Of a stretch of 64,000 bases of DNA, positions 9,278 through 60,502 are shown in pieces; the stretch's first letter is position 1, and every line of letters starts with the position of its first letter. The translations under genes were made by a program, and so were the position numbers. The stretch is from positions 1,116,001-1,180,000 of the forward strand of contig JACGCN010000012.1 in the NCBI GenBank assembly GCA_014905825.1. Reading direction: 5' to 3'. Source of the stretch: Lyophyllum atratum (Eukaryota; Basidiomycota; Agaricomycetes; Agaricales; Lyophyllaceae). The notes under the pieces are model-generated. The model had not been told where the DNA came from. It searched no databases and saw nothing but the letters and a program-made list of their open reading frames with translations.

Positions 9278-11778
9278 CTATTTACCAAGGCTCTTGCGGA
9301 TCGCATTCTGCAACGTCAAGCCATCATCCTGTTGGACAGACTGTTAAATGACATTGAAAGCGTAAGGCGGATTTGGACGAACTTGATCAAGAGACCATGT
9401 GAAACATCCGGCCATGCCGTTCTTCTTCGCGAACGCTGCTTTGCTCGCAACGGAATATGTATCTGATCAGCAGAGCGATCAGGTGGGCCAATCGAATGAC
9501 AGAGCATAACTCAATCACCATCGTAGGTTACAACAGTCTTTTGTGCAGTATTGAACAAGAACTGGTTTAGAAACAGGTAAGCTGGCGTACATGGGCATCG
9601 CGTAAGAGGATACGCGTACCGGTGTATCACTGCAGTTGTCCCACCCTTCAAAAAGAACAGGTCGTTCGATGATACTTCAGATGCCAAAAAAATAAGACGC
9701 ATACCCATTGTGAAACCGCCACCCTCTCCGTAATTGCCATCAGCATGCTTAACGAGCGCGCCGAATTTGACGATGGCGCTGAAAGGTATCTGTTGTCCCC
9801 ACCATGATTGCAGATTCGCATTGGCAGCAACAGTCTTCAGCTCTGTCGGACGAGCATGGGTGCCGTTGAGGAAATGCATATCAGGTTCGGATGCAGGGAC
9901 CTCTGGTGCGCCATCTTCGGTTGACTCAGGGACGGATGCCAACTCCGTCTGTTGCAGGAGGAGCATGTCAGACGATGGGAGTAAACTGCCAGTGAGGGTT
10001 TTCTTGGTGCTTTGCGAAACGTAGCCGTAGAGCGGCAGGCCGAGCAACAGCTAATCGCAGCAATTGCAGCAATCGCAGTAAGCAAAGCGGAGACGTCCTG
10101 GAGAGAAAGGTATGTACAAACCTTTGAGGCAGGGAACCCAGCCGCTTTCCATTGAGCGAGACCAGCCTGGGCACTTGCCTGGGGTTGTTTGGAAGTTCCG
10201 CATAAGTTTCCTTTGGGACGAACATTCTCAGCTGAATGTGCTGTCATCGAACATTGAGATCGACATACCAAGGGGTGCATTGGGACCAGGATTAGCTGAT
10301 GCGCCCCATACGTCGTAGTTCCTGCGCAATGTGAGTGAATTGTTGATACTTTATCGCGGCGTTACAACACTTACATGATGTTAGCGTATGTCATCTGCGC
10401 CGCATATGCAGAGACATCTTTGAGGGGGCTTCCGTTTGAACCCAGCCATGGAAGATGAGGAACTGCGGCGGAGATGATCTTGGAAGCACCTGGAAAGGTA
10501 AGACTCTCTTAAGTTACCGCACGAGGCTTAGGGAAAGTTCTCGGTACCTAGAGCCGTTCGGAGAGCCTTCAGCAGGCTAAGAAGGTTCGCAGCATCTGCA
10601 GATGAGAATGGTTGTCCAGCTCCAGGTGAGTTGGGATATTCCTGGAATCGCGGATTGTCAATTCCTGATGATTCGTATAGCCAATCGACTTCTTACCCAA
10701 TCAAGATCGATTCCTGGGACCACGAACTGAGCCGCGAATAGTAACGACCGCTATAGTATGGAATACTCACCATCCAAACCATTGTTACTAATAGTGCTCT
10801 TGATCGAGTTGACCAACTTTGTACGGTTGGCAGACGATGAACATGAAGAGCTGAAATACTGACAGCCTCCCCATCCACCTAACATGAGAATTTGATCAAT
10901 CATCCTCCCCAATCCGACAGGAACATCGACAACAAACCAATAGACAGCACGACCTTGGTACCTTTGCCACTGTTATGCGCAGCAGTAGCAAGTCGCTTCA
11001 AGATAGCCTGGCTTCCTGATCCAAAAGAGAGTGCGGATGACGAATTGGGTGTGGCGAAGGCTGTTACGTATCGCAGGCATGCCGTTAGTCAAGACCGCCA
11101 CACAAGGAATTTCTAGGTGGCGACATACCGAAGAAGAGAATATCGAACTTGGAGAAATTGACTTTCTCCGGGGGGAAACTGCCAGCAGCCCAATCGACGT
11201 AGTATGCCGCAGCGATGGGCGTGGCGGCCGCTTCTACATCCCCGCCAGATGTGATGCCGAGGGTTAGCGCCGCCTTCCTTGAGAGCGTCGACGGAACCGC
11301 ATCCTCCACATCAAACTTGTGCGGGGTGGGGGCATCGTCTAGCGTGAGGAACTTCAGGAGGGCTGGGGCCTCTTTGTAGTCCGGCGACCTGAGGAGGTCA
11401 GAGAGGTACTGCGTGAGTCCGGCTTTGCGTTCAGCGATGAGAGTGTCGTCAACCCATGCTGATGGGATGAAGGTCGTTGCGAGCAGACGCTTCGGTGGGA
11501 GAGTGAAGCGGTCTTTCAATGCATCTAAATGGGTGGTGAGTCGCCATTGTACCCTAAAGTTGAAGGACTATCTTTACCATGAAGACTGGAGAACTGCGTC
11601 ATAGCCTATGTCAGCGCGATGTTCAGAGTCAGTTAGGTATAATGATTTCGCCAACCTCGGAATATCGCTTGGGCAGAACGGTATGTCTTCCATTGAGAGT
11701 TACCTGGACATTATAAAGAATGTGGGGGCGGGGGGACGAGGCAGTCGTGTGGTTATTGATAGTAATGAGGGGAGTCAT
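9278..11778 (-). CDS. PX domain-GH18 chitinase fusion protein, copy B
   Basis: The first exons run 11778-11656, 11593-11578 and 11524-11129, and further short exons follow down to a TAG at 9278-9280. The model gives about 560 residues without a frameshift. Residues 1 to about 110 form a PX domain: strands around ILYNVQVTLNG, the phosphoinositide-contacting RYSEF, then LPPKRLL, and helices with WVDD and ERKAGLTQYLSDLL. A linker of about 45 residues leads to a GH18 barrel with VVLSIGGWGG, the catalytic DGIDLDWEYP (D-x-x-D-x-D-x-E complete), MTYANIMNYDVWG, LLGLPLYGYVS and FTWSLDQDDG. GH18 enzymes hydrolyse chitin; PX domains dock on phosphoinositide membranes. No signal peptide precedes the PX domain, which points to an intracellular, membrane-associated enzyme. 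Compared with copy A it has a longer insertion after GSLLPSS. It lies head to tail about 0.9 kb downstream of copy A. Confidence 0.88.
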
Positions 11779-12681
11779 GATCAGTGGTGTGGCCGATGAA
11801 TAACAAGTTCAGAAGAGGCGAACTAGGCAATGAAGCGCATGCTATACTTATAACCGCGGTAAGTGTTGCCTCTTCAAGGCTTCTCGGGGCTCAAGATGCT
11901 CATAGGGCACCACACGACTACCGCCGATTACATAGGCATCCGCGTGTCGCATGATATGTCGCTCCAACAGAATTCAATCGCTATCTCGATTCTCATTTGG
12001 AGCAATACCACGATCGCGAAGTCCCGCGTCAATATCGACGTGTCAACAGGATGTCGCGGGAGAAACACTGGTCTTGGATGACGTCGGTTCCCGGAAAGCA
12101 ATGGGAATTCGAAGAAAGGACTAGCAGACCGGGACGCGTGGTGTCATGGTTTGGGACCATGATGGTAAGTATGTACATTCTTGTCAATGTCATTGAATTG
12201 GAAGCAAGCTGCAAAGTACGCCACACGTGATTGATGAAGAAGCAACGGCTGTCCACGGGTCCGCCAAGGTCCGCTGGGGTCCGCGCGACTGCGTTCAAGA
12301 AGTCGCCGCCTTTCTAACGAGCACATGACAATCATTCAGACAACACTAAAAGAAGCCACGTCACCTTGAAAAGCAGCGTATATATCGGGTACGCGAACAG
12401 CACCAAAAAATGGGAGACTGCGCATGTCAGTGAATGAAAAAAATCCAGAAATATCCTGACAGCACGGAGGTGCAGGAGTCCCGGTTCTAAAAAGCTCGAC
12501 CAAGAAGAATTTGGGTCGCGTCTCGAGAGGGTTGCTGAGCGTCATTGTTGACATGTTTGTATAGTATCCAGGTAGTTACGACGCACAACGATCCATTACA
12601 GCCTCCGTCCATGTACAGATAACCGCCGGGAAAATGACATGAGAAAAACATCAGACAAGGGCGAAGAACGTCATCCCCGGC
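11779..12681. other. Spacer between the two PX-GH18 genes, with a possible small minus-strand gene
   Basis: Two minus-strand frames (12554-12336, starting MSTMTLSNPLETRP, and about 12310-12029, with KGGDFLNAV and FFINHVWRTLQL) could be exons of one small gene, but I could not find a convincing splice and do not recognise either. Near 12258-12288 the motif ggtccgc occurs three times in 30 bases. The rest looks non-coding and must include the promoter of copy B. Confidence 0.3.
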
Positions 12682-14926
12682 CTAAGCTTTACCCAGGTTC
12701 GCGCGAATAATGTTGTGCAATGTCAGGCCGTCATCCTAGCCAGACAGGTTCCACCAGAAAGAAATGATGAGCGCTGGTACGAGGCGGGAGAAAAGTCCCA
12801 TATATGAATGAAAAATTCACCTGATCAAGGGACCACGTAAAGCAACCAGCCATCCCGGCTTTTTTCGCGAACTGGGTTTTCTTGGCTATACTTGAAGTAT
12901 CATCGTACGTGACCACAGTCGTTCGGCCTACGTTGAACAAAAACTGAACCAAAACAAAGGGAGAAGAAGGGTGATGATATGTCAGCTGCCGAACTAGACA
13001 TTTCAATACGGCTGGATAATCACCGGAGTATCACTGCAGTCGTCCCAACCTATCGCCACACCACGATGAGCCTAAAGTCAACAACAAGGAAAGTATTGAA
13101 GGCCCTACCACGAGTATATCCATTTGCACCAGCATAACTGCCATCGGCGTTTTTCTTCAGCGCTCCAATCTGCACGAGCTCCTTGAAGGAAATCTGCTGC
13201 CCCCACATGCCGCTGAGGTCACCAGCTGGGGCAAATGATAGGTCCTGGGGAGGGTCCCGTGGATGTGCGGCAGGGCTCGCGCACGGATCAGGCATGAGAC
13301 TTCCTGAGAGCTTCTTTGAAGTGCTCTTGGAGACATAGCCATAGAGGGCAAGTCCAAGGAGAAGCTTGGCTGCTGGGAAGCCGGCCTTCGTCCACTGAGC
13401 TAATGCAGCTTGGGCGGTCGCTTGTGGCTGTTTAGATGTTCCGCAACGGTTTCCTACAAAGAACCTAAGTTCCAGGGTTTCGTGAGACATACTGACAGAG
13501 AAGCGTACCAAGCGGTGCGTTGGGTCCAGGCTTCGATGATGCGCTATAGACATCGTAGTTCCTATTGTTATTATGTGAATATGAGCGCTCCCTGTTCCAT
13601 AGGATCACTTTCTCACATTATGTTGACGTAGGTCATTAACGCAGCGTATTGGGAAACGTCGGCCAATGGTCTGCCATCAGCGCCGCGCCAAGGCATGTGG
13701 GCGACCGCCGCAGAAATAATCTTCGAAGGTCCTAATCGAATGGTAAGTGACGTCTTAAATTCATTAGATTGAAGAACCCCACCCAGGGAAGGGCGGAGAA
13801 GCTTGAGAAGAGAGAGGAAATTCGCGGAGTCGGCTGGTGAGTGCGGGTTACCTGCACCTGTTGAGTTCGGGTACTCCTGAAAGGGAATTATGCTAAAGTG
13901 CAGCGGGGTTGTAACATATCCTTACCCAATCGATGTCAACGCCTAAAAGTCCGTTATGTTATTCTGAGGTTGATCTATTCAGGTTTGTTGAGCGTACCAT
14001 CGAGCCCAAACGAGTTGACGGCTCCAACCAAAGCGTTATTGAATTTGGTCCTGTTGGCGGCCGTGCTTGTTGCATTGCTGAACCAATGGCTACCCGCCCA
14101 ACCGCCTAGTCATCCAGGTTAACGGCGGATAGGAAGTGTCGCAAGAAATAGCTTACCAACGGATAGGACAATCTTCGTCTTCTTACCGCTTTGGCGGGCA
14201 TTGGACACGAGTTTCCTCAGCGTATCTTGGCTACCACTCTCCCAGTCAAGGGTCGAGGAAGCGTTGGGTGTTACAAAAGCTAGTGGACGCGACTTCATTA
14301 GTGCCGTTGACTTGAAGAAGCAATGTGCATACCAAAGAAGAGAATGTCAAATTTGGCAAAGTCGAGTTTGTTCGGAGGGTGACTCCAAGTACACCAAGCC
14401 GGATAGTATGCGGCTGCAACAGGTGCAGCCCTAGTGTCAGCTTCATATGATGCGGGATTGATGGTGACCATTCCGCAGGAAACCATGGCGGGCGCGCCTT
14501 GAATAGAGATAGGGAGGCTGCTGGCATCGAAAGAAGGGGAGGATAGGAATTGGAGGAATGCATCGTTCTTCTGGAATTCGGGCGTTGCATTGAGATTGTC
14601 CAAATACTCCACGAGCCCAGCTTTACGTTCGGCGATCAGCCCGTCGTCGACCCATGCAGACGGAGCGAGCGCATTGGCGAGAACGCGCTTGGGCGGAAAA
14701 AGGAACGAATCGCCCAGATAGTCTCGAAGGCCAACAAACTTGGGATGCCAAAGTGTCAACGAAAAACGCGTTCAGCAAGAGCGAAAGACATTACCTGGGA
14801 ATACCTTCGCAAAACTTCATATTGTTGGCCATTCTCGAAGGTAACCTTTACAGCGTACAAGATATGAGGGTTAGGAGATGAGGCAGTAGTGTGTTCCAGG
14901 ATAGAGATGTTCTTAATGGTCGCCAT
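12682..14926 (-). CDS. PX domain-GH18 chitinase fusion protein, copy A
   Basis: Twelve exons (14926-14795, 14738-14333, 14279-14157, 14105-13998, 13942-13926, 13876-13783, 13731-13617, 13561-13509, 13453-13109, 13049-13024, 12943-12821, 12735-12682) give 531 residues, every junction in phase. Residues 1 to about 115 are a PX domain: ILYAVKVTFENG, the phosphoinositide site LRRYSQF, the loop FPPKRVL, then WVDDGLIAERKAGLVEYLDNL. After a linker, residues from about 165 form the GH18 barrel: ILFFAFVTPN, IVLSVGGWAGS, catalytic DGVDIDWEYP with the acid Glu, VNIMNYDVYS, LGLALYGYVS and GCFTWSLDQDDG. The annotated start is the ATG of MATIKN; an in-frame TTG four codons upstream is ignored. There is no signal peptide or membrane segment. 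Expected role: chitin or chitooligosaccharide hydrolysis at an endosomal or vacuolar membrane, which is inference from the domain pair. A five-codon exon encodes part of the active-site motif. Confidence 0.92.
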
Positions 14927-15781: not shown

Positions 15782-18700
15782 CTACAACAGCTTGCTCGAA
15801 GCTGCAGGCGCAATCCGACTATGTATGAGCTTGACAAAGTACAGCGGCAGCGCGCTGATGGTCACAAGCACCGCAAGCTTCCACGCAAAGACCAATGACA
15901 CCACGAACGACGTATCTACCCATGCAGCCAACATGAGCGGAGACAGTAGCACAACTAAGGAGACACGTACCGAAATATTCTGGTAGAAAGGCGATACTAA
16001 TGATGTACAAGAATAGCGTTGCGACCTCAGAAACGACCATGTAAATATGCCTGGAAAGACGCGACGCGGAGTCAGACAGGAGATCCATGGACAGCAGATC
16101 CATGGACAGCTATGTACTGAAAAGGTAGAAAGACAGTGACGTACCACGTGGTAATCTCCAGAGCAACCATGATGAGCTCGTTGAGGATGAGCGCTGTGAA
16201 TGATATCGATACAATGTGCAAGAATTCATTCTCAAATAGGACGAGCGACATGATCATGATCGCGGCACCTGTGCACCAAATCCAATCCTGGTCAGTGAAA
16301 CGCAGATCCGCGCCGTAACATCAACTCACCCTGGTACAAGCTGATCATCAACCACTGGAAGAATGTCTTATATGACAATGCTCGTCCCTATAGATAAAAG
16401 TATGTTAGGGGCAAACAGATTGCGGGCGCTATGACAAAATCGGCCACCCACCTTCGTCAACTCCTTGTACAACTCCGGATATAGCAGCGCCAGATCCTCG
16501 TTGACGTCCCGATCGAGCACAAGCGAGAAGACAGGCGCCATAGTATAAACCGTCGCATACCCTACCATCAGCCAGCCTTGATAAAGTGCAATCGGGGCGA
16601 AGTAGAAGATAGCTGAGAACACGGCCTGCATGATCGAGATGATCAAGCCGCGGTGGATAACAAACTGCGCCAACTTCGCAGAGCGCCGGTATGAGTTGCG
16701 CCCATGCCAGAGAAGGAGCTTCGTTAGGTAACTGAACTGGGTCACGGAAAAGTCAGCCGCGAGTGAGGCTTGTTTGCCTTCTTTGCCGACGATGCCTACA
16801 CCTTAATGAGAGGGTGGATCGAGATTAGGATGTGAATGAGATTAAGAGTGGAGTAACGCACCAACATCCGCAGCCTGTATCATACTCACATCGTTCCCAC
16901 CATCTCCGATGCAGCACACGCGCTTTTTGGTGTGTATCCGAATCAAGCGCGCAACATCTGCCTTCTGGGTCGGTGAACATCGGCACGCCACCACGGCAGA
17001 GAGTTTAGTGGCAATTTCGATGAACTCGTTCTTGAACAGGTTGAGACATAGCTGGACGGCGAGAAGTGAGCAGAATATAAGAGCTATTAATAACTCGAGA
17101 ATCGGACCTGCAGCGATTCTCCATCGATAACAAGACAGCAGTCGAGCTTTGATTGCAAGAACTCCAACTGGTCCCGAACCTCGTCCGAAGTCTTCACTGT
17201 TGGCACTACGTCAGCACCAAAAAAAGATCGTGAAGAGAGAACAACGTACGTCTAGAAATCTCGTGGATGTACTGATTCCTTGCCACCAGCTTCGTCGATA
17301 TCGCAATACACCTGGCCGTCTCGATCTTATCCCCAGTCAACATCCAGATCTTGATCCCAGCATTCCTCAAAATCTCCAACGTAGACCTGACGTCATCCTG
17401 CAGCTTATCCTCTACTCCAGTCAGCCCAAGCAGCTCCAAATCGCGCTCCAAAAACTCCGCTACCACCGCCGCCATGGCCTCGTTCCTGCCCTCTAGCCTG
17501 ATGCTTGCTTCGTGGTGCCGTGCCTTGAAGTCCTTGTACAGCTGGGAGCCCAGTCGCTTGCGTGCCATGACGAGCGTGCGTAGACCCTCACGCGCCATAT
17601 TCGCAGTCTCCTCCTCAAGCCAGTCGTTCCGCTGCACGATCCGAGCCATTACGACGTCTGCACCCTTTTGTAGGAATGTGATCTCGCCCGTCTGCCGATC
17701 ACGGACGACGATCCCCATGCGCTTCGATTCGGAGGTGAATGGGAAGATGTCGAGTACGTCGAAGGAGATCCGGGATCCGGAGGGTGTTTGGAGGTCGATC
17801 CGTGTACGGTCCCGGAAGACAAGAGTAAGGCCGATGGATTGTGTCCAGGTTACGATAGCAACTTCATCGGGGGAGGAAGCTTGGTAAGTCACTGTGCCGT
17901 CGTCGTTGGTGACTGGGGTGACCTGGACCAGTATGTCAGGCATGTCAGGCAGGAAGATGTATTCGAAACCTACATTGTGACATAGAGCTAGGCTGAGCAC
18001 GACATCGCGAACACGAGATGACATATCTCTTCTTCCTCTTGTGGCCAGCTGAGCACCAGTAGATAAGGAACCTTGCCTCGCATGCGCTGCTTCACCACGT
18101 TAGAAACATATGTCTTGATATAAGCTGAGATCGTACACACCTGGTTCTGCTGCTCCAAAAGCGACCTCAAGCTGATGCGCAACCTCATCCATAGAATCAA
18201 AGCCATAGGACATGGTACCCATATGCAGCTTCTTCATCTCCATTTCTGAACAGCCGTGTCAGCATTGCTCTCATTGACATTCCCAAACTCGACATACCGT
18301 TTTGCGTCAAGGTTCCCGTCTTATCGCTCAGCAAGTACTCAATTCGCCCAAGTTCCTCCGGTAGTGTACTCGTCCGCACAATCGTATTCGGTATCTCGTT
18401 GTCATTCATGATCTGCTGCGCATAGACTGTTTTTCCCATATCAAGGTTAACACGTAAACTGTCGAACTGTGAGCTCGATCCATGAATGACAGGGAACTAA
18501 CATACCTGATCGGGATGATGGAGGAGAAGAGGATCAAGAATCTGAACACATAGATGTACCATGGGCCGCGAAACCCGTTCAGCGCGACGAGCACAATCGA
18601 CAATATGAAAGTGACAGCGCACAGGATCTATATGCCACGATGAGAATGAGAAGAGGTAACCACAGAAAGACGACTTACCTTTGCCAGGTTGTTGATCTCT

Positions 18701-20202
18701 AAATCCAGTAGTCCGATCTTCGTTTCCGGGTGACTCGTGTTCATCACGGCACGCGTCTCCGGTCCTGTATATACAACGAATCCGACCGCGGAGCCCGCAG
18801 CTAAGACTGTATTGGCCCATAGCACATTCTCGACGGTCAACGGTGACACCGAAGGTCCAACTTCAGAGTCACTATTCTGCGGCGAGTGGTTGAGTGTGAA
18901 CGTGCCAACGAAGGAGTGGATATCTTTGATGGGGGAGTCCGCTAAAGTCCTTCTTTCGCATCAATTTAAATAGGACGACGTAGAAAGACTGCACTCCTTA
19001 CCGTAAATTTCAGCATCAAGTTTAATGAGCGCTGATTCATCGAGCTTCTGGCATTCGGGCACTGCAACGCGCAGCTTCCAATCTGTTTCACCATCCAGTT
19101 GATCTGTGCGGATGAAGCAAGTCCCTGAGGCGTCGGACGTGTGTAAGAGGACAAGGTCGGCAGGCACCCGCTGATTCTTTTCCAGGTGGACAAGGTCGCC
19201 CACACGCAGGTTTGAGGAAGGCACGGACCGCGTGTGCAGATAGGCGTCTTCGCGAGCTAGAACGGAGGAGGAATCGTCGGGTGGCGGTTCCAGAATAAGA
19301 TATTTCTGGGAGTTGGCTTCTCGGTCTCGGAGGTGGCGTTTGTAGTCGTCGTAGGCCTCCTTGCCCATGGTAACGATGAGGACAAATGCGAGTGGTGCGA
19401 TATACGTCACAATATAGCCTGTAGACGCGTCAGCGGCGGCTCGGGAAAACGAAAGAGATATGCTAACCTATCTTGAGGGCAGGGATAAATTGGGAAAGGG
19501 CGACGAGGAGGAAGTACAGGTTGAAGAAGAATTTGAATTGCTCGTAAAACACGATGGGCAGGAACGTAAAGGCGTTATATTTCTGATTCCGTACAATGTT
19601 CGGGGGAAAGCGTGATTGTATTTTATCTAAGGAGGAATCGGTCAGAATTTGCAAGGCCAGAATTATCAGCAGACACAGTTCAATATACTCGCAGCATCTC
19701 TCTTCCGACATGTACAGAGTACAGGCAGGAGGTTGATATCGAGTGCATGGGGTGCATAGATAATCACAGCAAAACGAACAGAACGTACCTGGTGGTCTGA
19801 AGGGTATCGTACGCGAACTGTCTTTCGAGATAGCACGTGGCGTCTTGCGTAGCATGGGAGTAGGCAGCTGCTGCATTATGAACACCACGCGCAGCAGTCA
19901 TGCGACTATTCACGTACCTGAGGCGTCCCCGGCTCGTCCTCCTCAACCTCAAATTCTTCGGCGTAGTCTCCTCTCCTAAGCAACCCCGCCTCTTCCTCTG
20001 GATCATCAACATATCTGTCGTTCCGTGTCCGCTTTCCTGCACGAAGGTTATGTCGCGAAGACGATGAGGCAATGGCCGCGATCCTGTTGGGTAGTGGCAT
20101 AGTCTGTGAATCGGTTGATAACGGCGATTCCGAGTCCGAAATAGGTATATAGTTTGCGCGAGCCTTGCTTCTTCGAATTGAGTGTAAGGGGATGTCCGAC
20201 AT
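15782..20202 (-). CDS. NEO1: P4-type ATPase, NEO1/ATP9A class phospholipid flippase
   Basis: Many short introns split the gene. The pieces read in order: an acidic N-terminus from ATG at 20202 ([11 protein letters not shown]), [18 protein letters not shown] with the first membrane pair near 19.5-19.6 kb, the actuator motif DGETDWKLR (P4 version of the TGE loop, near 19.1 kb), the phosphorylation site [11 protein letters not shown] (near 18.3 kb), the nucleotide domain with [10 protein letters not shown] and [17 protein letters not shown], the hinge [11 protein letters not shown] (near 16.9 kb), and six C-terminal membrane segments ending near [12 protein letters not shown]. The short N-terminus and C-terminal wording are those of the beta-subunit-independent NEO1/ATP9 class. 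These enzymes flip aminophospholipids to the cytosolic leaflet of Golgi and endosomal membranes at the cost of ATP. All signature residues are present. A 15-bp tandem repeat at 16083-16112 lies in an intron. Confidence 0.93.
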
Positions 20203-50137: not shown

Positions 50138-51108
50138 TTACGATCGTATAAAAACTTGCCCGAGACACAGCTCAACAGACAATTCATCCGGATAAGAATC
50201 CATGACGCGGTCAAACAGTTCCCACCAGCTAGGGGGAACCCAGCCACCGAAGTAGGTCGTTGTATACTCCCAATACTCTGGCAGCCACCCCGCCCTCTCC
50301 CAATCTATGACACCTACGATCTTCCCATCCTTCCACAAGATGTTATGCGGTCCGAGATCTCCGTGGGTGAAAACAGTCCTGTAGACTCGTCCAGAGGTCT
50401 TCTCGAAGCTGTCGCGATATTTTGGAAAGTTTTTATACGCGTATTCGTGACCGCAGAACCGATGAAAGTCGTCCACTGTATCGAAAGGACCCCACGGCTC
50501 CTGCGCCAGCCTCCAATCAATACAGGTTTTGCCATCAACGCCCTGCACCTTTCCTGGTGCCGGAGGCTTGAGAGCGCGGAGCTCATCGATATAGCCTTTG
50601 AGCTGGTGCATGGAACTAAGCCTTTCCTGTTCATTCAGATCGCGCCAAACGTCGGAGAGCAGAGGAGCATCGATGTAGTCCATGACGAGCCAGGTCTCGC
50701 CGCGCACGGAAAAGACATCGTGTACACGTGGTACGGGTATAGAGGTGTTTTCGGCGATGAAACGCAGGGTCAGAGCGTCAGTGAGTCGAACATGGTTTGC
50801 GTCACCATGCTTCACAATGGTGTCATGATTGAGTCGGACGACACTGGCCAAGGGAGACAGTTTGTACCGATGTATCCCTAGCTTTATTCGTATATTAAAA
50901 AGTAGCAAGTCAACGCCACGCAGTTCGCGAAGGTGAGTGAGATCAGGCACTGGTCGATGCTTCAAAGACGAACTTTGGACTGCGACAACTCGGGATGTGT
51001 CCGATATCCCTGGTGAGAGCTGGTTCAATCCGTGTCTAGCGCTAATGAGTTTCCAGCCAGGTAAATGAGTGGAAGAGCCTAAGAAACGTACTTCTGTGAA
51101 TCTTGCAT
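50138..51108 (-). CDS. APH-like small-molecule kinase, cassette copy 2
   Basis: Exon 1 is 51108-51092 (MQDSQN) and exon 2 is 51041-50138, giving about 306 residues. Motifs of the aminoglycoside phosphotransferase/choline kinase-like fold: KLGIHRYKLSPLASVVRLNHDTIVK (nucleotide lobe), IPVPRVHDVFSVRGETWLVMDYIDAPLLSDVW (hinge), FTHGDLGPHN (catalytic loop H-x-D-x4-N) and GVIDWERAGWLPEYWEY (metal-binding Asp). Fungal relatives are numerous and mostly uncharacterised; substrates may be small hydroxylated compounds. There is no signal peptide. It is divergent from DUF6914 copy 2 about 1.1 kb away. All catalytic residues are present, so it looks active. Confidence 0.88.
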
Positions 51109-52190
51109 GTTGAGGAAGGGAGTCAAACCGCGTGGAGAGAGAAGGTTTGCGTCGGACAAGGTAAGTTTATAATCGGACCGTTTGGACGTTGGAAGCGGAC
51201 AGCGAAACTAGCGGCCATTTCCGACCAAGAAGGGTCTTACACAATCAGAGTTGTTCGAGGCTTCGAGCATCACATTGACTCACATTGATAACAAGGACCG
51301 TCAACATGATCATCTTTGGACAGCTATACAGCAGGCAGCGCTCATCATTCTTCCCGAAACCAGAAAAAAACCGCCTTGTGATCCTAAGCGGCAGGGGCCA
51401 ACTACACAAGATACCTCGTGGTCAAGGAGACATGGGGAGATATCAAATTCTTGTGGGTGTAGGTAGGCGCTGAATTTCTGTCAGTCTTGAGCTCGAGTCA
51501 GTGTGCACGCGTTACTGGGTATTCATATGCTCCATCTGTATCTTACGGGGCTTTCGTTGCGCTCTAGCCCCTGCCTTCCTGCCCTCCTTCCTGATCCTTG
51601 GGTCGAAAATTAATTATAGCGCCTACATGCCGCCTATCAACAAACGACTTCTATCTTCCTATTACACTGCCGCATCTCTAGCTATGCTTCTAAAGGCCCC
51701 GTTGGTCTGGTTAGCACAACCCTGTGTCACGGTGGTCGCTCAACCTAGCCTTTCACTCGCAGCGCCGCCTTTTCGCCATACGGCGAGTACAGGAATTCTA
51801 TTGCGAGATTTCCCGTCAGGTGGACATGGAATGGGTACCGCGAACCACGATATAGGACAGGTACACTTCCTCGTTCCGTGGGTGTGATAATTGGTTTTCA
51901 TCATATTGACTCATCCTAGCCTCGTGTAATATTTACAGAACGATGCTAGCGAGATATCAGAACAAGGGTGACCCGACTTTGGAAATCTCAAAGGCTATCG
52001 CGATCTACGATGCAGGGCGTAAGAGCGCTGCGGGTACGATTTGGAGCATGCACAGCGTTTCTCATCAGTGGACTGATCGTTTTCCATGGTATATAACTTG
52101 GATACCTGCCCCCCACTTCTCCCATCGTTCCTCCCCCATAAACTTCTGGCTATAAGATGAATAAATGCGAGTGTTGACATCGTTTTTTTA
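51109..52190. promoter_or_regulatory. Divergent intergenic region of cassette unit 2
   Basis: The 1.1 kb between the kinase start and the DUF6914 core holds both promoters. The block gtaagtttataatcgga ... gttggaagcggacag at about 51161-51210 is the uninterrupted version of the site into which the LINE has inserted in unit 3. The plus-strand frame 51501-51887 is cysteine/leucine-rich but unsupported. Confidence 0.5.
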
Positions 52191-53726: not shown

Positions 53727-54691
53727 TTAACATCGTGTAAAAACTTGCCCGAGAACCCGCTCAACAGATAATTCATCCGGATAAGAATCCATGATGCGGT
53801 CAAACAGTTCCCACCAGCTAGGGATATCGGGGCCACTAAAGTAGCTCGTTGAATACTCCCAATACTCTGGTAGCCACCCCGCCCTCTCCCAATCTATGAT
53901 ACCCACAATCTTCCCATCCTTCCACATGATGTTATGCGGTCCGAGATCTCCATGTGTGAAAACAGTCCTGTAGACCCGCCCAGATGTCTTCTCGAAGCTG
54001 TCGCGATACTTTGGGTAGTTTTTATACACGTATTCGTGGCCGCAGAATTGATGAAAGTCATCCACTGTATCGAAAGGACCCCATGGCTCACGCGCAAGCC
54101 TCCAATCAATACAGGTGTTGCCGTCAACGCCCTGCACCTTTCCTGGTGCTGGAGGCTCAAGAGCGCGGAGCTCATCGACATATCCTTTGAGCTGGTACAT
54201 GGAGCTGAGCCTTTCCTGTTCATTCAAATGGCGCCAAACGTCGGAGAGCAAAGGAGCATCGATGTAGTCCATGACGAGCCAGGTCTCGCCGCGCGCAGAA
54301 AAGACATCATGTACACGGGGTACGGGAATAGAAGTGTTTTCGGCGATGAAATGCAGGGTTAAGGCATCAGCGAGTCGAACATGGTTCGGGCCACCATGCT
54401 TCACAATGTTGTCGTGATCGAGTCGGACGACAATGGCAGCCCGCTTGTACCGATATATCCCTAGCTTTATCCGTATATTGAAAAGTAGCAAGTCAGCACC
54501 ACTCAGTTCGCGAAGGTGAGTGAGATCAGGCTTTGGTCGATGCTTCAAAGACGAACTTCGGACTACAACAGCTCGGGATGTGTTCGATGTCCCCGGTGAC
54601 AGCTGATTCGATCCGTGTCTAGCGCTAATGAGTTGCCAGCCAGATACACGAGTGTAAGACCCTAGGAAACGTACTTCTGTGAACCTTGCAT
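53727..54691 (-). CDS. APH-like small-molecule kinase, cassette copy 3
   Basis: Exon 1 (ATG at 54691, MQGSQN) and a second exon ending at TAA 53727-53729 give about 305 residues, a close paralogue of the kinase at 50138-51108. The hinge LVMDYIDAPLLSDVW, catalytic loop FTHGDLGPHN and metal site GIIDWERAGWLPEYWEY are intact. Differences cluster near the nucleotide lobe (KLGIYRYKRAAIVVRLDHD) and close to the C-terminus. Its promoter region has been interrupted: the LINE begins about 80 bases upstream of the start codon, which separates the kinase from its DUF6914 partner and may alter its expression. Confidence 0.88.
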
Positions 54692-54773
54692 GTTGAACGT
54701 TGAGGAACAGACCGCATGGAATGGAGAAAGAGGGTCTGCGTCGGGCGAGGTAAGTTTATAATTGGATAGTGAT

Positions 54774-54978: not shown

Positions 54979-57900
54979 TCATGCAGCCACAGACGGTATG
55001 AGAAGGGGAGCGCTATCAAAAAGTGCGAAGATGTCGAATATGTATTCAGCGAAGAGAGGGCATAACCCACGGTCACTAACGAGGTGAATAATGAACTGGG
55101 AGGCAGGGGGAGATTGATATGCGATCAGGAGGTCGGGGCGTAACTGTAGGACGGTGTGTATAAATTGCCGTCGCAGAGGCCTCAGGTTGGGGTGGCCTCT
55201 ACAGGCAAAGAGAGCATGCGGTTCGTCCTCCACGGAAGATTCACAGAAGCGGCACAGTCGACGATGTCGCTCAATGTGGGGACGGCCTGAGACGTGGCGA
55301 CGAAGTTGCTCGATTGCTAAGCAGTGGTCTGATAGAAGAAAACGTGTGATGGCGACACGGTGACGAGGGTTAGGAATTCGGAGGTATGGCTGCAGACGAT
55401 ACGTGGTGACGTCGTGATTCCCGACTTGAAATACCAATTTAGTGGAGGAGTTCCAGAGGTCAATGAGGTGCCGCTTTGCGACAAGAGAAACTTCGGAGGC
55501 AAGTTTGGGTGCGCGCGCAGTAAGGTTGCCGAGGGTGAGGTGAAGAGGGTAGGGCAGGGAATTCAGAGTGTGGAGTAAGCCGCTGATCCAGCAAGACTTC
55601 CCATGAGTCGCAAGCAGGAAAGAGTCACGCAGAGCGCAGGATGCAAGATGATGTCGAGGTAGGTTCAGGGCGTAGATAAGATATCCAATTGACAGCATCA
55701 GTCGACGATACTTGATGGGGAGAATGCCTGTCTCGGTGAATAGAGGGTGTAAGACAGAGCGACCGGAGACGCGCAGCAGTCGGCGCAAGAATGAATGCTG
55801 AACGCTTTCGAGGTCTTTAAGGCCGACGCTGTCAACGTCAACGATAATTTCGCAGCCGGAGGTTAGGTGAGGGTCGACGCGTGCCATATAGAGTATCCTG
55901 CCGTCTGCAGGTGGCAGGGCGCCCAGGAAAGAATCGATGGCAAATGTCGCACCGGAGATACTCCGAGCAGCAGATGCCTTTGAAGCTAAGTGGGCGCGGA
56001 ACATGTGCTTATGGCGGAAGTCAAAGGTGATGCCGACGTAGGTGTATGACGTGACGTGCTTGATAGGCTCGGAGTTCATGAACATGGTAGGGATCGGATG
56101 TCGATAAGAGCCTGCGAGAGCCCACTCCGATTTGACGATGCTGACAATCATACGATTGATCGAGCACCATCGGCACAGGGCATCAAGTTGCGACTGAAGG
56201 CCAGTATGCGAGGTGGAGAAAAGGACGATGTCGTCGGCTTGTTCTACATGGGAGACGGGACAGCCATTCAAGCAAACATCGTGAGGGTGATGGGGGAGAT
56301 GGAAGTCGGAGAAGAAGACATTCCATAGACCGGGGGAGGCGGTGTCGCCAGTCAGCAAGCCAATTAAGGACGAGAACGATTCAGAGATTTCCCCCCCAGC
56401 ACGGACGATGTACCGCATCTCTGCATACAGGTTCCGTAGCCAATCAAATATAGGACCCGAGACGCCCTTCCCATACAGCTTGGACCAAAGGGTGGGTAAG
56501 TCTGTCGAGGGAAAAGCGTTCTTGAGGTCGACGAACGCAATGAATAAAGGCAGTCCATCGGCTTGAGCGCGTTCAATGGCGCAGCGTAGAATGAAGGAAT
56601 TATTGTTGGTACGGTACCGTGGTCTGAAGCCATTCTGCGTGTCAGGCAACACATGTTCAGCCTCCGCCCAGTCGCGAATGCGCTTGTCAACAAGGAGGGT
56701 GAGGAGTTTGAGCATACAGGATTGAAGACCGATGAGACGGTAGCTGTCAGGATTGGTGCCGTCCTGATTTGTTTTCAGAATTCCGATGAGAACTGTGTGA
56801 AGCCATGGACCAGGGGTGCGACCTGAGTCAATGCATGCCTGGAGTAGAGGTAAGAGGCGCTCGTTTGGGATGTTGACGATCAAGGAGTACGAAACCCCGT
56901 CTGCGCCCCTCGCGCTTTTAGGACTATGCTTTGCAAGTTTCGCCTTGGCCCATTGCAACTCGCCGATAGTGAAGGGGGAGCTGAAAAAGGAACCTGAGGT
57001 ACGGTCTACGGTGGTGACAGGGAGAGCGTCGGCGAGGGACCGTGCAGCGGCATGGGCTCGGACATCAAACACGGGTGGAGGAACGGGCAGCGGATTGATT
57101 CGGGCTCGGAAGACATGGTAGAGCTGATGCGCGGTGACTTGCAGGGGACGAGATTTAGGATCAGTCCATTTACGAATGAGATTCCAGTATTCTCGATTCG
57201 TTTGACAGGATTTTAGATCCTGCAGATTGCTAACCTTCGCCGCGCGCTCGGCAGCTCGCCCCCGGTGAGCATCGAGATTAAAGTCGATATAGTCAGGAGA
57301 GACGTTGTCGACGTCTTTAGAGGTCGGAGGTACAGCCAATGAAAGTGACGTGGAGACTTTAGGTACTGTGGTTGTGGGAGGGGGTGGTTCAGAAATAACA
57401 CGTGGTTGCGGGCCTCGCGACGGGATGTGGTACACGAGGGAGTCGTGCCGTCGGGTACACGCGGCGTTAGCGAGTAACCTTCCCTCCAATTGATGCACCA
57501 CGCGGGGGGAGGCATGCAGAGGTAGGAAATCCACGGATGCAGCGCGTGCAATAAGGAATTGCACAATGAGGGCGAGAATATCTCCGTTCGAACACTGCCA
57601 GCCTTGGGACATATGTCGAGAAGCGAAGAAAACCAGTGTTCGAATTAGACCTTTTGATGATGAATATAAACGTAGGGGGACATCAGGAGGGGAATGTTGC
57701 AGGACGAAAAGGACAGCAGCCGCTGAAGCCCTGGCGTCGGTCTGTGTACCTGTGATCCGGTGACCGATGTTGCGGTGGCATTTCGGCCCATAGTACACAC
57801 CGAAGGCAGCCACGGGAGGCCCATTGTCGTACCGGTGGCATGTGGAAGCGGTGTAGACGCTAACAGGTGGGACAGTGTCATGCGCCTGACCATATAACGC

Positions 57901-58899
57901 CGAAGTTGCGTCTTCGACAGGGAGGGCGGAGGTTAAGGTGGCCTCAAGGATAGTGTTCAAGTTTTGCGTCGCGTGGTCTGCAGGAGGACCCGCTAATAGC
58001 TGTGTCAACAATTTGCGGGCGTTGGAGGCCTTAGGAGGCTGGGAGGTTTCGGGCGTGACGCGAACGTAGTAAGTGAGACGAAGTTGGGCATGGTCGGACC
58101 ATCGACTTTGAAGAAAGTTGAGAGAGCGAGGGCGTAAGAGAGTGATCATAGCAGTATTGGCTAAGACGTAGTCGACGACCGCAGATCCACCTGGTTGAAA
58201 CGAGGTAAACGATCCTTGCTGTGATGCGTCAAACAGTGTTCCGTTCAGTATCGCAAAAGACTGGTCGTTGCACATAGCTAAGACGCGATTACCACGAGCG
58301 TTGCGCACCGGGTCTGGAGAGGATCTCGGGAGCGCAGTGGTGGTCGATTGGGCGGACGAGATGCGGGCGTTAAGATCTCCGATGATCATCACCGGGCCAG
58401 AAGAGATGGCAGAGATCGTTGTGACGGTACTGAACAGGCGCTCTTCAGGGTTGATGTCAGTCCACTTGTACCAATTGGAATTCGGAGGAGGGAGGTAACA
58501 GCAGGCGATAATACATTCAGCCAGTCGAAGAACGAGGAGATCTGGCGCGCAGAGATCCGTCATGAGGTGTATATCCAAAGACGACTTAAACACAGCGGCG
58601 ACTCCACCCCTCTGTGAGTCCCAGTTGGGAGATAGAGGTCGAGAGACTGCGAAGATAGAGAACCCATCTGGGAGTTGCAAGCAGTTCTCCTGAGAGGGAC
58701 GAAGCCATGTTTCGAGAAAGAAGGTGACGTCGTGTTGTTGTATTAAGGTAAGTATCTCGGATTGCGTACTTTTAAGCGCCAGATTACCATGGAGGTTCCA
58801 TGCGCAAACATGTAGACTAGGACGGAAGTTAAAGTGATGTATAGTAACATGTCGGAAAAGTCCTACCCCCGGAAGTCCCTTCCCCTGATGAGCTCGAGG
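54979..58899 (-). CDS. LINE ORF2: endonuclease, RNase H-like domain, reverse transcriptase
   Basis: The open frame has more than 1300 codons. The APE endonuclease comes first: WNLHGNL, FLETWL with the catalytic Glu, GDLNAR and SDHAQL. Counting from a TTG at 58680, residues 270-415 resemble RNase H (VYTASTC, GPKCHRNIGHRITGTQTDAR, LYSSSKG, GWQCSNGD), but the four catalytic acids are replaced. The reverse transcriptase spans about 595-900 with FVDLKNAFPSTD, GLLTGDTASPG and QADDIVLFS, so its acidic triad is present. A C-x2-C...H-x4-C finger (CRFCESS...HALFAC) sits near the end. There is no ATG before the endonuclease: the frame opens after a TGA at 58900-58902 and overlaps the end of ORF1 by 37 bases. 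Confidence 0.93.
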   Translation of the reverse strand, partial: PRAHQGKGLPGVGLFRHVTIHHFNFRPSLHVCAWNLHGNLALKSTQSEILTLIQQHDVTFFLETWLRPSQENCLQLPDGFSIFAVSRPLSPNWDSQRGGVAAVFKSSLDIHLMTDLCAPDLLVLRLAECIIACCYLPPPNSNWYKWTDINPEERLFSTVTTISAISSGPVMIIGDLNARISSAQSTTTALPRSSPDPVRNARGNRVLAMCNDQSFAILNGTLFDASQQGSFTSFQPGGSAVVDYVLANTAMITLLRPRSLNFLQSRWSDHAQLRLTYYVRVTPETSQPPKASNARKLLTQLLAGPPADHATQNLNTILEATLTSALPVEDATSALYGQAHDTVPPVSVYTASTCHRYDNGPPVAAFGVYYGPKCHRNIGHRITGTQTDARASAAAVLFVLQHSPPDVPLRLYSSSKGLIRTLVFFASRHMSQGWQCSNGDILALIVQFLIARAASVDFLPLHASPRVVHQLEGRLLANAACTRRHDSLVYHIPSRGPQPRVISEPPPPTTTVPKVSTSLSLAVPPTSKDVDNVSPDYIDFNLDAHRGRAAERAAKVSNLQDLKSCQTNREYWNLIRKWTDPKSRPLQVTAHQLYHVFRARINPLPVPPPVFDVRAHAAARSLADALPVTTVDRTSGSFFSSPFTIGELQWAKAKLAKHSPKSARGADGVSYSLIVNIPNERLLPLLQACIDSGRTPGPWLHTVLIGILKTNQDGTNPDSYRLIGLQSCMLKLLTLLVDKRIRDWAEAEHVLPDTQNGFRPRYRTNNNSFILRCAIERAQADGLPLFIAFVDLKNAFPSTDLPTLWSKLYGKGVSGPIFDWLRNLYAEMRYIVRAGGEISESFSSLIGLLTGDTASPGLWNVFFSDFHLPHHPHDVCLNGCPVSHVEQADDIVLFSTSHTGLQSQLDALCRWCSINRMIVSIVKSEWALAGSYRHPIPTMFMNSEPIKHVTSYTYVGITFDFRHKHMFRAHLASKASAARSISGATFAIDSFLGALPPADGRILYMARVDPHLTSGCEIIVDVDSVGLKDLESVQHSFLRRLLRVSGRSVLHPLFTETGILPIKYRRLMLSIGYLIYALNLPRHHLASCALRDSFLLATHGKSCWISGLLHTLNSLPYPLHLTLGNLTARAPKLASEVSLVAKRHLIDLWNSSTKLVFQVGNHDVTTYRLQPYLRIPNPRHRVAITRFLLSDHCLAIEQLRRHVSGRPHIERHRRLCRFCESSVEDEPHALFACRGHPNLRPLRRQFIHTVLQLRPDLLIAYQSPPASQFIIHLVSDRGLCPLFAEYIFDIFALFDSAPLLIPSVAA
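57436..57867 (-). other. Degenerate RNase H-like domain within ORF2
   Basis: This segment keeps the RNase H layout: first strand, G-Q-T followed by an R-A-rich helix, L-x-x-Y-S-S-S-K, G-W-x-x-x-N-G, and an H...N-A end. At the active-site positions it has Ala for Asp (YTAS), Ala for Glu, Ser for Asp (YSSSK) and Asn for the last Asp. It lies between endonuclease and reverse transcriptase instead of after the latter. Confidence 0.65.
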
Positions 58900-60170
58900 T
58901 CATCGATATCAGCAGAAATGGGACAGAATCTGGGTGGTAAGTTTGGGTCGTCTGCGTGCATCGTAGCCATATGCCCCATGCCAGGAGGTGGGAGGGACGT
59001 GAATTGGTGGATGAAAGAGGAGGACAGGTGACGATTCCTGAAACGAATACTAAGAATCGTAGTGTTGCTGTTCCATCGACCAGCGCTAAGGACGTTGCCA
59101 TCAACGAAGTTAGACATTTTGGTAACAATTGCGCGTGCGATGGCCAATGAGTTCCCGTTGGGGGCGACGGGGTGTATAAGAACGTCACGGTCGTCAATTA
59201 CCACCCTGGACTTTTTATGGAAACCGCTGTCGTCTTCATGAGCACGCTTCTGTCCCGGGTGCATGCCCTGGATTCCGTAGGAAGGCCCGGCAGCTGTGCG
59301 CCCATCGTTCGGGTTGAACGGGGCGGAAGGGTGGTTGAAGTGGGGGGACGTATCGAGCGCAGGGGAAGGGATGTATGAGGGAGCGACGGAAGGAGGTGGA
59401 GCGGAGGCGCGCGTAACGACGGGGGAGGTGCGCATAGTGTGAATATCTTGGCGTAGACCGTTAACAGCACGAGAGAGGTTGTTAACGTCTTTACCATACG
59501 CGACGACGGTGTTACAAAGTTTATTGAATTGTTCGTTAGTGCGCAGAGCGTGGTCGAAGCCAGACCCTACGTTCGAACGTTGGGGCGCGGACCCATAGTC
59601 TTGAATAAGTTTAGTAAGGCGCTCATTACGGTCGTCGGTGGAAGTGGTGAGGGACGATAATTCATCTTCCAGCTTTTTGATGTGGGAGGCGAGGACGGCG
59701 TCGTTGTGGAATGCACGATGAAGCTCATCGCGGGCCGTAGTTGTACGAGGAGAGGAGAGAGGCAGTGTGATCCCAACGACGTCGACCATGGAGCGGTCGT
59801 ATTCGGTAATGAGAGAAGGTTGGGCAACGACATTCTCCGTTGAAGTCGAAGGTTCAGTAGGAGAGTCTATCACGGCGCGGGAGGATGCAGTTTGCTTTCG
59901 GATTGGCCTGGCTTTACCTTTGCCTTTAACTGTCGCAGACGAGATCGCCAGGGAGCGACTGCCGTTGCTAGGCTGAGCGTCCTCTTCGCCCCCGAGAGCC
60001 GCAGCAGAGGGTGCGATGGAAGGTGGAACACCAACGCTTTGACAACTATTCTGTGTATGGTCGAGCGGGTCGTCAAACTCGCCGCTCGGAGGTGTTGAAG
60101 GACCCTCCTGTTCGAGAGGGGTAATGCTGGGGAAACGAGGGAGAGAGGGCAGGCGGGGAGTGTCAGACAT
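58863..60170 (-). CDS. LINE ORF1 protein
   Basis: 435 residues from ATG at 60170 to TAG at 58863-58865. The N-terminal third is Pro/Ser-rich, the middle carries a helical region with HIKKLEDELSSL and a second amphipathic stretch (VNNLSRAVNGLRQDIHTM), suggesting coiled-coil trimerisation. The C-terminal domain (RDVLIHPVAPNG ... TTILSIRFRNRHLSSSFIHQF) looks like a small alpha/beta, RRM-like fold. ORF1 proteins of LINEs bind the element RNA. The stop codon directly follows a run of five G residues, and the next frame over continues into ORF2. Confidence 0.8.
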   Translation of the reverse strand: MSDTPRLPSLPRFPSITPLEQEGPSTPPSGEFDDPLDHTQNSCQSVGVPPSIAPSAAALGGEEDAQPSNGSRSLAISSATVKGKGKARPIRKQTASSRAVIDSPTEPSTSTENVVAQPSLITEYDRSMVDVVGITLPLSSPRTTTARDELHRAFHNDAVLASHIKKLEDELSSLTTSTDDRNERLTKLIQDYGSAPQRSNVGSGFDHALRTNEQFNKLCNTVVAYGKDVNNLSRAVNGLRQDIHTMRTSPVVTRASAPPPSVAPSYIPSPALDTSPHFNHPSAPFNPNDGRTAAGPSYGIQGMHPGQKRAHEDDSGFHKKSRVVIDDRDVLIHPVAPNGNSLAIARAIVTKMSNFVDGNVLSAGRWNSNTTILSIRFRNRHLSSSFIHQFTSLPPPGMGHMATMHADDPNLPPRFCPISADIDDLELIRGRDFRG

Positions 60171-60502
60171 CAGGGGCGGGAAGAAGCACGGTAGTGGCGG
60201 GTAAAGGAGGGCAGTCTAAATAAAGGTCTACGGCGGCGGTGACGACGCATCGAATGGTGCTAGAATGTTAAGGACTTTTGGGTCGCCGAGACATGATGAC
60301 ATTGTGGTTGAGGCATGTTCCGTATAAAGGCCTATCAGCACTCACTTAGTAGGGGAACAGGCAGGAGGCAATGAAAGATACAATTGAACGGTAGCGGACG
60401 GGAATGTAGTACTTTTAATTAGTGTTACGGCGGGAACGTAGGATAAAGCTTTAAGTATCAATTTAGACGGGAAGCTCGTGATCATTTAACTAGGGCGGCA
60501 TT
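60171..60502. other. Spacer between the two ORF1-like genes of the LINE
   Basis: 332 bases with no open frame of note. If the downstream ORF1 has its own promoter or is reached by re-initiation, the signals would be here. Confidence 0.5.

What the first reader, a model, noticed from the sequence alone, without database searches (positions are those of the whole stretch)
9278..14926. PX domain fused to a GH18 chitinase, present as two tandem genes
Both genes, rebuilt across about a dozen introns, begin with a phosphoinositide-type PX domain (RRYSQF / KRYSEF and PPKR motifs) and continue into a GH18 barrel with an intact D-x-x-D-x-D-x-E. Neither has a signal peptide, unlike secreted cell-wall chitinases. 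A membrane-docking intracellular chitinase would suggest a role at endosomes, vacuoles or chitosomes, such as turnover of chitin or chitooligosaccharides during trafficking or autophagy. The function is inference; the domain order is seen in sequence. I do not know whether this architecture is already described in agaricomycetes.
Basis: partly seen in the sequence, partly recalled or inferred. Interest (0 to 1): 0.85.

Follow-up and report, generated by a model that had tools for sequence, protein, structure and literature searches.

The report
Tandem PX-domain chitinase genes in mushroom
Two neighbouring mushroom genes each join a membrane-lipid-binding PX domain to a chitinase-type enzyme; the join is real, but the same architecture occurs in many mushroom-forming fungi and has been mentioned in print, while its function is still open.

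Summary
Two head-to-tail genes on the minus strand (A 12682-14926, 12 exons, 531 aa; B 9278-11778, 15 exons, 559 aa) each encode an N-terminal PX domain and a C-terminal GH18 barrel. My spliced proteins equal two Lyophyllum atratum database proteins letter for letter. In both genes one unbroken exon spans PX end, linker and GH18 start; a second haplotype keeps all 25 introns and both frames (dN/dS 0.21 and 0.14). The architecture is not new: 117 of the 120 listed database hits carry both Pfam domains, and a 2021 paper mentions PX-domain chitinases of Ganoderma and, citing 2016 work I could not read, Phanerochaete (there expressed but chitinolytically inactive). Added here: the sampled PX-GH18 proteins form one clade; presumed PI3P-pocket and catalytic residues are nearly invariant; many, not all, PX-less relatives show a secretory leader; the pair is an old duplication; and a linker motif (ED[AVI]xP...PSTLS-like) is in 42 of 42 non-A-type and 0 of 28 A-type rows. 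Best reading: a cytosolic GH18 enzyme recruited by PI3P to endosomal or vacuolar membranes. Lipid binding, substrate and role are unproven.

The parts
12682..14926 (-). Gene A (A-type PX-GH18), CDS of 12 exons, 531 aa, stop included
   Evidence: Splice; exon table; identical to P0001; Pfam; second haplotype
9278..11778 (-). Gene B (non-A-type PX-GH18), CDS of 15 exons, 559 aa, stop included
   Evidence: Splice; exon table; identical to P0057; Pfam; second haplotype
14535..14926 (-). Gene A PX domain, residues 1-112 (one intron, after RRYSQ)
   Evidence: Pfam PX residues 31-111 E 6.5e-10; best solved-chain match is a designed CISK PX, E 2.8e-6; secondary structure
12685..14423 (-). Gene A GH18 barrel, residues 150-531 (introns included)
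13874..14001 (-). Gene A catalytic motif DGVDIDWE (residues 256-263), interrupted by two introns
   Evidence: conservation
14333..14738 (-). Gene A exon 2, one open exon joining PX, linker and GH18 start (residues 45-180)
11328..11778 (-). Gene B PX domain, residues 1-112 (two introns)
   Evidence: Pfam PX residues 31-107 E 3.7e-10
11274..11306 (-). Gene B linker motif EDAVPSTLSRK (residues 120-130), absent from gene A
   Evidence: ED[AVI]xP and PSTLS-like patterns each in 42 of 42 non-A-type rows and 0 of 28 A-type rows; low model confidence, no firm structure
9281..11219 (-). Gene B GH18 barrel, residues 149-559 (introns included)
   Evidence: Pfam GH18 residues 152-544 E 8.4e-53
10639..10774 (-). 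Gene B catalytic motif DGIDLDWE (residues 255-262), interrupted by two introns
11129..11524 (-). Gene B exon 3, one open exon joining PX, linker and GH18 start (residues 47-179)

Best explanation
Each gene makes one polypeptide: a PI3P-type PX domain, a flexible linker of about 35 residues, and a chitinase-type GH18 barrel. The protein has no signal peptide, so it is made in the cytosol, where the PX domain holds it on PI3P-bearing membranes (endosome, multivesicular body, vacuole, autophagosome). The barrel is catalytically competent by sequence. I think it most likely works after membrane traffic or cell breakdown brings it to its glycan: vacuolar or autophagic recycling of endocytosed wall chitin and chito-oligosaccharides, or release when hyphae lyse. 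The lineage arose when the GH18 barrel of a secreted chitinase came to lie behind a PX domain in place of a signal peptide, early in Agaricomycetes, and later duplicated into A-type and non-A-type copies. Shown here: domains, fusion in one exon, conservation, one clade among the sampled rows, duplication, linker-motif difference. Inferred: PI3P binding, location, activity, substrate, role, and the secreted ancestor.
Against: Chitinase activity was reported absent for the P. chrysosporium PX-chitinase (second hand), although the P. sordida row here (P0069) has every catalytic residue checked. No lipid-binding, localisation or transcript data. Chitin is not known to exist in the cytosol (established knowledge), so the membrane face where PX docks is not where polymer chitin lies. 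The vacuole or autophagy step is inference only. The secreted ancestor rests on a leader seen in only 12 of 24 PX-less basidiomycete rows of the nearest group.
Confidence: 0.5

Rival explanations
1. Unconventionally exported chitinase: the PX domain brings the enzyme to an endosome-rich export site at septa, clamps or tips, from which it leaves the cell without a signal peptide and trims wall chitin, as Cts1 of Ustilago maydis does with the help of the phosphoinositide-binding protein Jps1.
For: No signal peptide, intact barrel, phosphoinositide-type domain. A basidiomycete precedent exists for unconventional chitinase export that depends on a phosphoinositide-binding partner (PMC12167484, passages seen).
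Against: Cts1 has no PX domain as far as I recall, and Jps1 shows no similarity to known phosphoinositide domains. No secretome evidence was examined. Sequence relation to Cts1 was not tested.
Confidence: 0.2
2. Not a chitin hydrolase: the barrel acts on another GlcNAc-containing glycan (for instance cytosolic free N-glycans) or is a dead, lectin-like barrel on a membrane anchor.
For: Second-hand report of a chitinolytically inactive PX-chitinase in P. chrysosporium. Weak matches to endo-beta-N-acetylglucosaminidase models: TIM-barrel_EndoS in 10 of 70 rows, Endoglyc_H E 1.6e-9 for A but far under its cut-off.
Against: Catalytic D, D, E and the Y-D and W of the active site are kept in 69-70 of 70 rows, which a dead enzyme would not need. 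The nearest solved structures are chitinases. The GH18 part is under purifying selection between haplotypes, dN/dS 0.20 and 0.10.
Confidence: 0.25
3. The PX domain no longer binds lipid but serves as a protein-interaction or folding module.
For: Not all PX domains bind lipid strongly (established knowledge). Lys61 is Asn in Hypsizygus A (P0004) and Arg82 is Ser in Guyanagaster (P0018).
Against: Four pocket positions are each kept (Y/F and K/R allowed) in 69 of 70 rows, while neighbouring PX positions vary freely.
Confidence: 0.08
4. Gene-model artefact: a PX gene and a neighbouring GH18 gene wrongly joined.
For: Splicing is inferred from sequence, with no RNA-seq available here.
Against: One exon without intron spans both domains in both genes; second haplotype keeps it; 117 of 120 listed hits carry both domains.
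Confidence: 0.01

Closest known systems
PX-domain chitinase of Phanerochaete chrysosporium (Karlsson, Stenlid, Lindahl 2016, Fungal Ecology; not held, known only as cited in PMC8097845)
   Same: PX domain and chitinase in one agaricomycete protein, as cited; a protein of a related species (P. sordida, P0069) lies in the same clade as the window pair
   Different: Different species. Reported as chitinolytically inactive; activity of the Lyophyllum pair is unknown. I could not compare the sequence itself.
PX-domain modular chitinase of Ganoderma boninense (PMC8097845, passages seen)
   Same: PX plus chitinase; up-regulated during the oil-palm interaction according to the paper
   Different: Expression only; tandem arrangement and linker motif not discussed in the passages seen
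RmChi1, Rhizomucor miehei GH18 chitinase (PDB 5xwf, 5yuq, 7fbt)
   Different: No PX; no Mucoromycota row listed has PX in the precomputed column, and several show a hydrophobic leader
PX domains of Sgk3/CISK and, more weakly, Vps5-like, SNX7, SNX16 and p40phox proteins
   Same: PX profile and the R-[RK]-Y-S-[EQD]-F, PPK and ERK motifs (designed CISK PX E 2.8e-6, Sgk3 E 0.001, the rest E above 0.01)
   Different: Their other domains are kinase, BAR, SH3 and the like, none a glycoside hydrolase (recalled)
Ustilago maydis Cts1 with Jps1 (PMC12167484, passages seen)
   Same: Basidiomycete chitinase that leaves the cell unconventionally; phosphoinositide recognition matters
   Different: There lipid binding lies in a partner protein without a known phosphoinositide domain; here it would be built in

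Membership tests
PX domain (PF00787) | Profile match above the curated cut-off | tested here: met
   39.9 and 40.6 bits against 21.6; 70 of 70 rows at E 0.001 or better
PX domain (PF00787) | PX fold | tested here: inconclusive
   The model has the expected order: strands 4-13, 23-30, 35-40, helices 42-52 and 76-95. The fold searches were filled by GH18 barrels, so no structural PX match was obtained.
PX domain, PI3P-binding type | Pocket residues Arg, Tyr, Lys, Arg (mapping recalled from p40phox and SNX3) | tested here: met
   R41, Y42, K61, R82 in A and the aligned residues in B; each kept (Y/F, K/R allowed) in 69 of 70 rows
PX domain, PI3P-binding type | Measured phosphoinositide binding | not testable with these tools
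   Needs a liposome assay
GH18 (PF00704) | Profile match and barrel fold | tested here: met
   189.8 and 180.5 bits against 29.6; structure matches for A
GH18 (PF00704) | DxxDxDxE with SxGG, xYD and the C-terminal Trp | tested here: met
   Present in A and B; D259 69/70, D261 69/70, E263, S219, Y334, D335, W510 70/70; the first Asp D256 62/70
GH18 chitinase | Hydrolysis of chitin | not testable with these tools
   Second-hand report of inactivity for a relative
Agaricomycete PX-GH18 clade | PX N-terminal to GH18 in one protein, no leader, one clade | tested here: met
   117 of 120 listed hits with both domains; clade of the sampled rows 100/99 and 95/95
Fungal GH18 subgroup A-III | Grouping with reference A-III sequences in a tree | not tested
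   No labelled reference was used; the taxon pattern described for A-III (basidiomycetes, early fungi, a few Sordariomycetes; PMC8042737, passages) resembles the hits
ENGase of GH18 type | Match above a curated ENGase cut-off | tested here: inconclusive
   Endoglyc_H 37.3 bits against 300 for A, TIM-barrel_EndoS not listed for A or B at E 0.001; no fungal ENGase reference was compared
Cts1-type unconventional export | No signal peptide and found outside the cell | not testable with these tools
   No leader; export: no data

The most novel reading that the evidence does not exclude
A change of side kept across much of a fungal class: early in Agaricomycetes the GH18 barrel of a secreted chitinase lineage was placed behind a PI3P-binding PX domain, turning an outward-facing wall enzyme into a cytosolic, membrane-recruited one that has been kept since with both lipid pocket and active site intact. 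After an old duplication the two copies parted by linker: non-A copies keep a short linear motif around EDAxPSTLSRK that would couple the enzyme to a trafficking or kinase partner, and A copies lost it.
Probability: 0.35. Interest if true: 0.6.

Novelty: already known. Interest (0 to 1): 0.36.

Why it matters
If the PX domain docks an active chitinase on endosomes or vacuoles, mushroom-forming fungi have a built-in link between phosphoinositide membrane identity and wall-glycan turnover that the PX-less relatives seen here lack. It would give a handle on how hyphae recycle wall material during autolysis, fruiting and septation. The pair in one genome, with and without the linker motif, is a natural comparison for what that motif does. 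The fusion itself, however, is common and was already annotated and mentioned in print.

Tried and rejected
Chance or artefact: rejected (one exon across both domains, second haplotype, exact database match). Novel architecture: rejected. Two independent fusions for A and B: rejected, since all 11 introns of A are at the same place and phase in B and all 54 PX rows form one clade.

Literature: ten searches in open-licence PMC papers only. PX domain + GH18 + chitinase gave 0 papers, PF00787 + PF00704 gave 0. Of the 9 papers with 'PX domain' and 'chitinase' I saw passages of one (PMC8097845) and only the listing of the rest. Karlsson 2016 is not held. Passages only, too, of PMC8042737 (no 'phox' or PF00787), PMC2614207 (no 'phox', 'px-domain' or 'phosphoinositide'), PMC13220806 (no 'phox') and PMC12167484. 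No search was aimed at Coprinopsis alone or at the linker motif.

A hydrophobicity test for signal peptides did not separate the groups cleanly (2.2 or more in 15 of 121 PX rows and 78 of 101 PX-less rows), because PX strand beta-1 is itself hydrophobic. A longest-uncharged-run test gave 10 or more in 15 of 118 PX rows and 78 of 94 PX-less rows; the 15 are ordinary PX N-termini by eye. Seven rows (P0003, P0007, P0009, P0032, P0046, P0052, P0091) were left out of the PX side of that count, and PX-less rows not starting with M or of 360 aa or less out of the other. In the tree only 12 of 24 PX-less basidiomycete rows of the nearest group show a leader by eye; of the other 12 most start at or near the barrel (perhaps cut gene models), so the 'secreted ancestor' rests on those 12 and on the outer groups. 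VIA and Foldseek lists were filled by GH18 barrels, so no PX fold match was obtained that way. NCBIfam gave only matches under the cut-offs. The model of B shows no confident structure for the linker motif.

Dropped rows: alignment A1 holds 70 of the 120 listed proteins (chosen by me for spread of species), A2 holds 49; trees used 78, 77, 57 and 70 rows; the Tilletia row P0231 was removed from the second tree as a long branch. Each homologue list shows the best 120 only (of 663, 327 and 1262). Against a class-wide claim: rows listed from Hymenochaetales-type genera (Schizopora, Rickenella, Phellinidium) and Ceratobasidium have no PX (scanned); whether those genera also own a PX-GH18 gene was not tested.
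Full report
OBSERVATION. The interval 9278-14926 holds two genes on the minus strand, head to tail, with 903 bases between them. I spliced each by GT..AG introns. Gene A runs from ATG at 14926 to the stop ending at 12682, 12 exons, 531 aa. Gene B runs from ATG at 11778 to the stop ending at 9278, 15 exons, 559 aa. The two proteins are 55% identical over 560 alignment columns; by domain 58 of 109 in PX, 3 of 37 in the linker, 240 of 380 in GH18. Pfam finds PX (E 6.5e-10 and 3.7e-10) and GH18 (E 1.2e-55 and 8.4e-53) in both, all above the curated cut-offs.

IS THE FUSION REAL? Four independent points. First, my spliced proteins are identical, letter for letter, to two database proteins named Lyophyllum atratum, P0001 and P0057, which also points to the organism. 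Second, A exon 2 (14738-14333, residues 45-180) and B exon 3 (11524-11129, residues 47-179) each run without an intron from inside PX, through the linker, into the barrel; the PX and GH18 parts share an exon and cannot be separate genes. Third, the assembly holds a second haplotype (G000:C81, L021): all 25 introns keep GT at the start and AG at the end, both frames are open, and protein identity is 495 of 531 aligned positions (A) and 540 of 559 (B). dN/dS is 0.21 for A and 0.14 for B; for the PX parts 0.09 (A) and 0.27 (B), for GH18 0.20 and 0.10; the short linker gives 1.26 in A, on few changes, and 0.27 in B. Fourth, 117 of the 120 listed database hits carry both Pfam domains in their precomputed annotation, the window's own two proteins included. 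One of the three exceptions, P0052, scores for PX in my own scan (it is one of the 70 of 70); the other two, P0007 and P0091, have odd or short N-termini and were not scanned. In the window's own genome the only PX-GH18 genes that I found are this pair and its allelic pair (six-frame searches that score only the best candidates).

WHERE IT OCCURS. Named hits span Agaricales, Polyporales, Gloeophyllales, Auriculariales and others (orders assigned from my own knowledge); one search adds Ramaria (P0277, PX E 2.7e-7). A search with the Mucoromycota chitinase RmChi1 (120 of 327 listed) gave 11 rows with PX in the precomputed column, the named ones all Agaricomycetes and none from Mucoromycota. A search with a Tilletia relative (120 of 1262 listed) gave 16 named rows from Tremellomycetes, Dacrymycetes, Ustilaginomycotina and Pucciniomycotina, and none has PX in that column; I scanned 9 of these 16 with Pfam and found PX in 0 of 9 (eight at E 1; P0231 at E 0.001). 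So within what was listed the fusion is confined to Agaricomycetes. Absence elsewhere is not proven, because each list shows only the best 120, and listed rows from Schizopora, Rickenella, Phellinidium and Ceratobasidium (Agaricomycetes) also lack PX.

HISTORY. In a tree of GH18 domains only (77 rows), all 54 PX rows form one clade, support 100/99; with a wider set of basidiomycete relatives (57 rows, 23 of them PX) the clade still stands at 95/95 (bootstrap not fully settled). A PX-less Fomitopsis protein (P0247) is its sister there: a loss, an earlier branch or a cut gene model. Many PX-less relatives start with a hydrophobic leader, often followed by a long Ser/Thr-rich stretch, for example Cryptococcus, Apiotrichum, Sporobolomyces, Phaffia, Calocera and Sympodiomycopsis; by eye 12 of the 24 rows of that group in the tree have a leader, and most of the rest begin at or near the barrel. 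I read this as a secreted ancestor whose N-terminus was replaced by PX; the polarity is inference.

THE PAIR. All 11 introns of A are shared with B in position and phase, and B has three more, so an already fused, intron-rich gene was duplicated. A-type copies form a clade of 28 of the 70 rows of A1 (SH-aLRT 99, quick tree) and of 19 rows at 100/98, the named ones all from Agaricales genera (my assignment). In the tree, 12 of the 14 species for which I included two copies from records of equal contig length have one A-type and one other copy; Mycena kentingensis and Piloderma have two close copies instead. Equal contig length is only a proxy for lying on one contig; direct neighbourhood is seen in the window and suggested by consecutive locus tags in Tricholomella (P0007, P0103). 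The duplication is therefore old, and the two copies often stay on one contig.

A CONSERVED LINKER MOTIF. The linker between the domains is poorly conserved and of low model confidence. Yet two patterns in residues 96-200, ED[AVI]xP and P[ST][TM][LF][STP], are each found in 42 of 42 non-A-type rows of A1 and in 0 of 28 A-type rows. The strict heptapeptide PSTLSRK is in 30 of 70 rows. In alignment A2 the Glu is invariant and D, P, S, T, L and R are at least 90% conserved over 49 rows. The motif is in Auriculariales and Ramaria, so it is probably ancestral and lost in A. Its role is unknown; no claim of an established motif class is made.

WHAT IT PROBABLY DOES. Shown: one polypeptide, PX plus GH18, no leader, both functional sites kept across many agaricomycetes. 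Inferred: cytosolic synthesis, recruitment to PI3P membranes, hydrolysis of chitin-like glycans once traffic or lysis brings enzyme and substrate together. Against activity stands one statement, read second hand in PMC8097845, that the PX-chitinase of P. chrysosporium was expressed but chitinolytically inactive. The conserved active site argues that it has some substrate. Export without a signal peptide, as for Cts1 of Ustilago maydis (PMC12167484, passages), is the main rival for the route, and a non-chitin substrate the main rival for the activity.

NOVELTY. The architecture is known: visible in databases for many species and mentioned in print for two. The detail on clade unity, conserved pocket plus active site, old duplication and the linker motif is computed here; in the searches listed under Tried and rejected I saw no paper that reports it, but none was aimed at those details and most subscription journals are not in that library. 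I therefore score it as already known, with moderate interest for the unsolved function.

Noticed in passing
window about 15800-19900, minus strand: Exons of a P-type ATPase, the next gene upstream of gene A that I recognised (Cation_ATPase E 1.2e-7 and haloacid dehalogenase-like Hydrolase E 6.4e-7 in the 17209-18099 frame; flippase-like stretches by eye in neighbouring frames). No functional link is claimed.
   Followed up: partly
window 50138-51166 and 53727-54755, minus strand: Two kinase-like open frames of the APH phosphotransferase family (E 5.3e-15 and 6.5e-14), much alike by eye, probably a duplicate pair.
   Followed up: partly
window 54979-60215, minus strand: A LINE-type element next to the second APH-like gene: a 1306-aa open frame with endonuclease and reverse transcriptase domains and a 450-aa frame just before it.
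   Followed up: partly
G000:C81:306400-313200 (L021): The assembly holds two haplotypes: the same gene pair is present with exons about 91-100% identical.
   Followed up: yes
window 11274-11306 (gene B) and homologues: Linker motif around EDAxPSTLSRK, its two patterns in 42 of 42 non-A-type and 0 of 28 A-type rows; role unknown.
   Followed up: partly
proteins P0247 (Fomitopsis) and P0262 (Rhodofomes): GH18 proteins of Polyporales without a PX match; P0247 is sister to the PX clade: PX loss, pre-fusion branch or cut gene model. P0262 was not in a tree.
   Followed up: partly
protein P0106 (Marasmius crinis-equi): PX-GH18 with both Asp of the DxDxE core replaced: dead copy or gene-model error.
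   Followed up: no
PX-less relatives P0288, P0289, P0297, P0298, P0308, P0224: Database models from six species begin MAYYPDW at the first barrel strand; perhaps missing 5' exons, but PX-less enzymes without a leader are not excluded.
   Followed up: no
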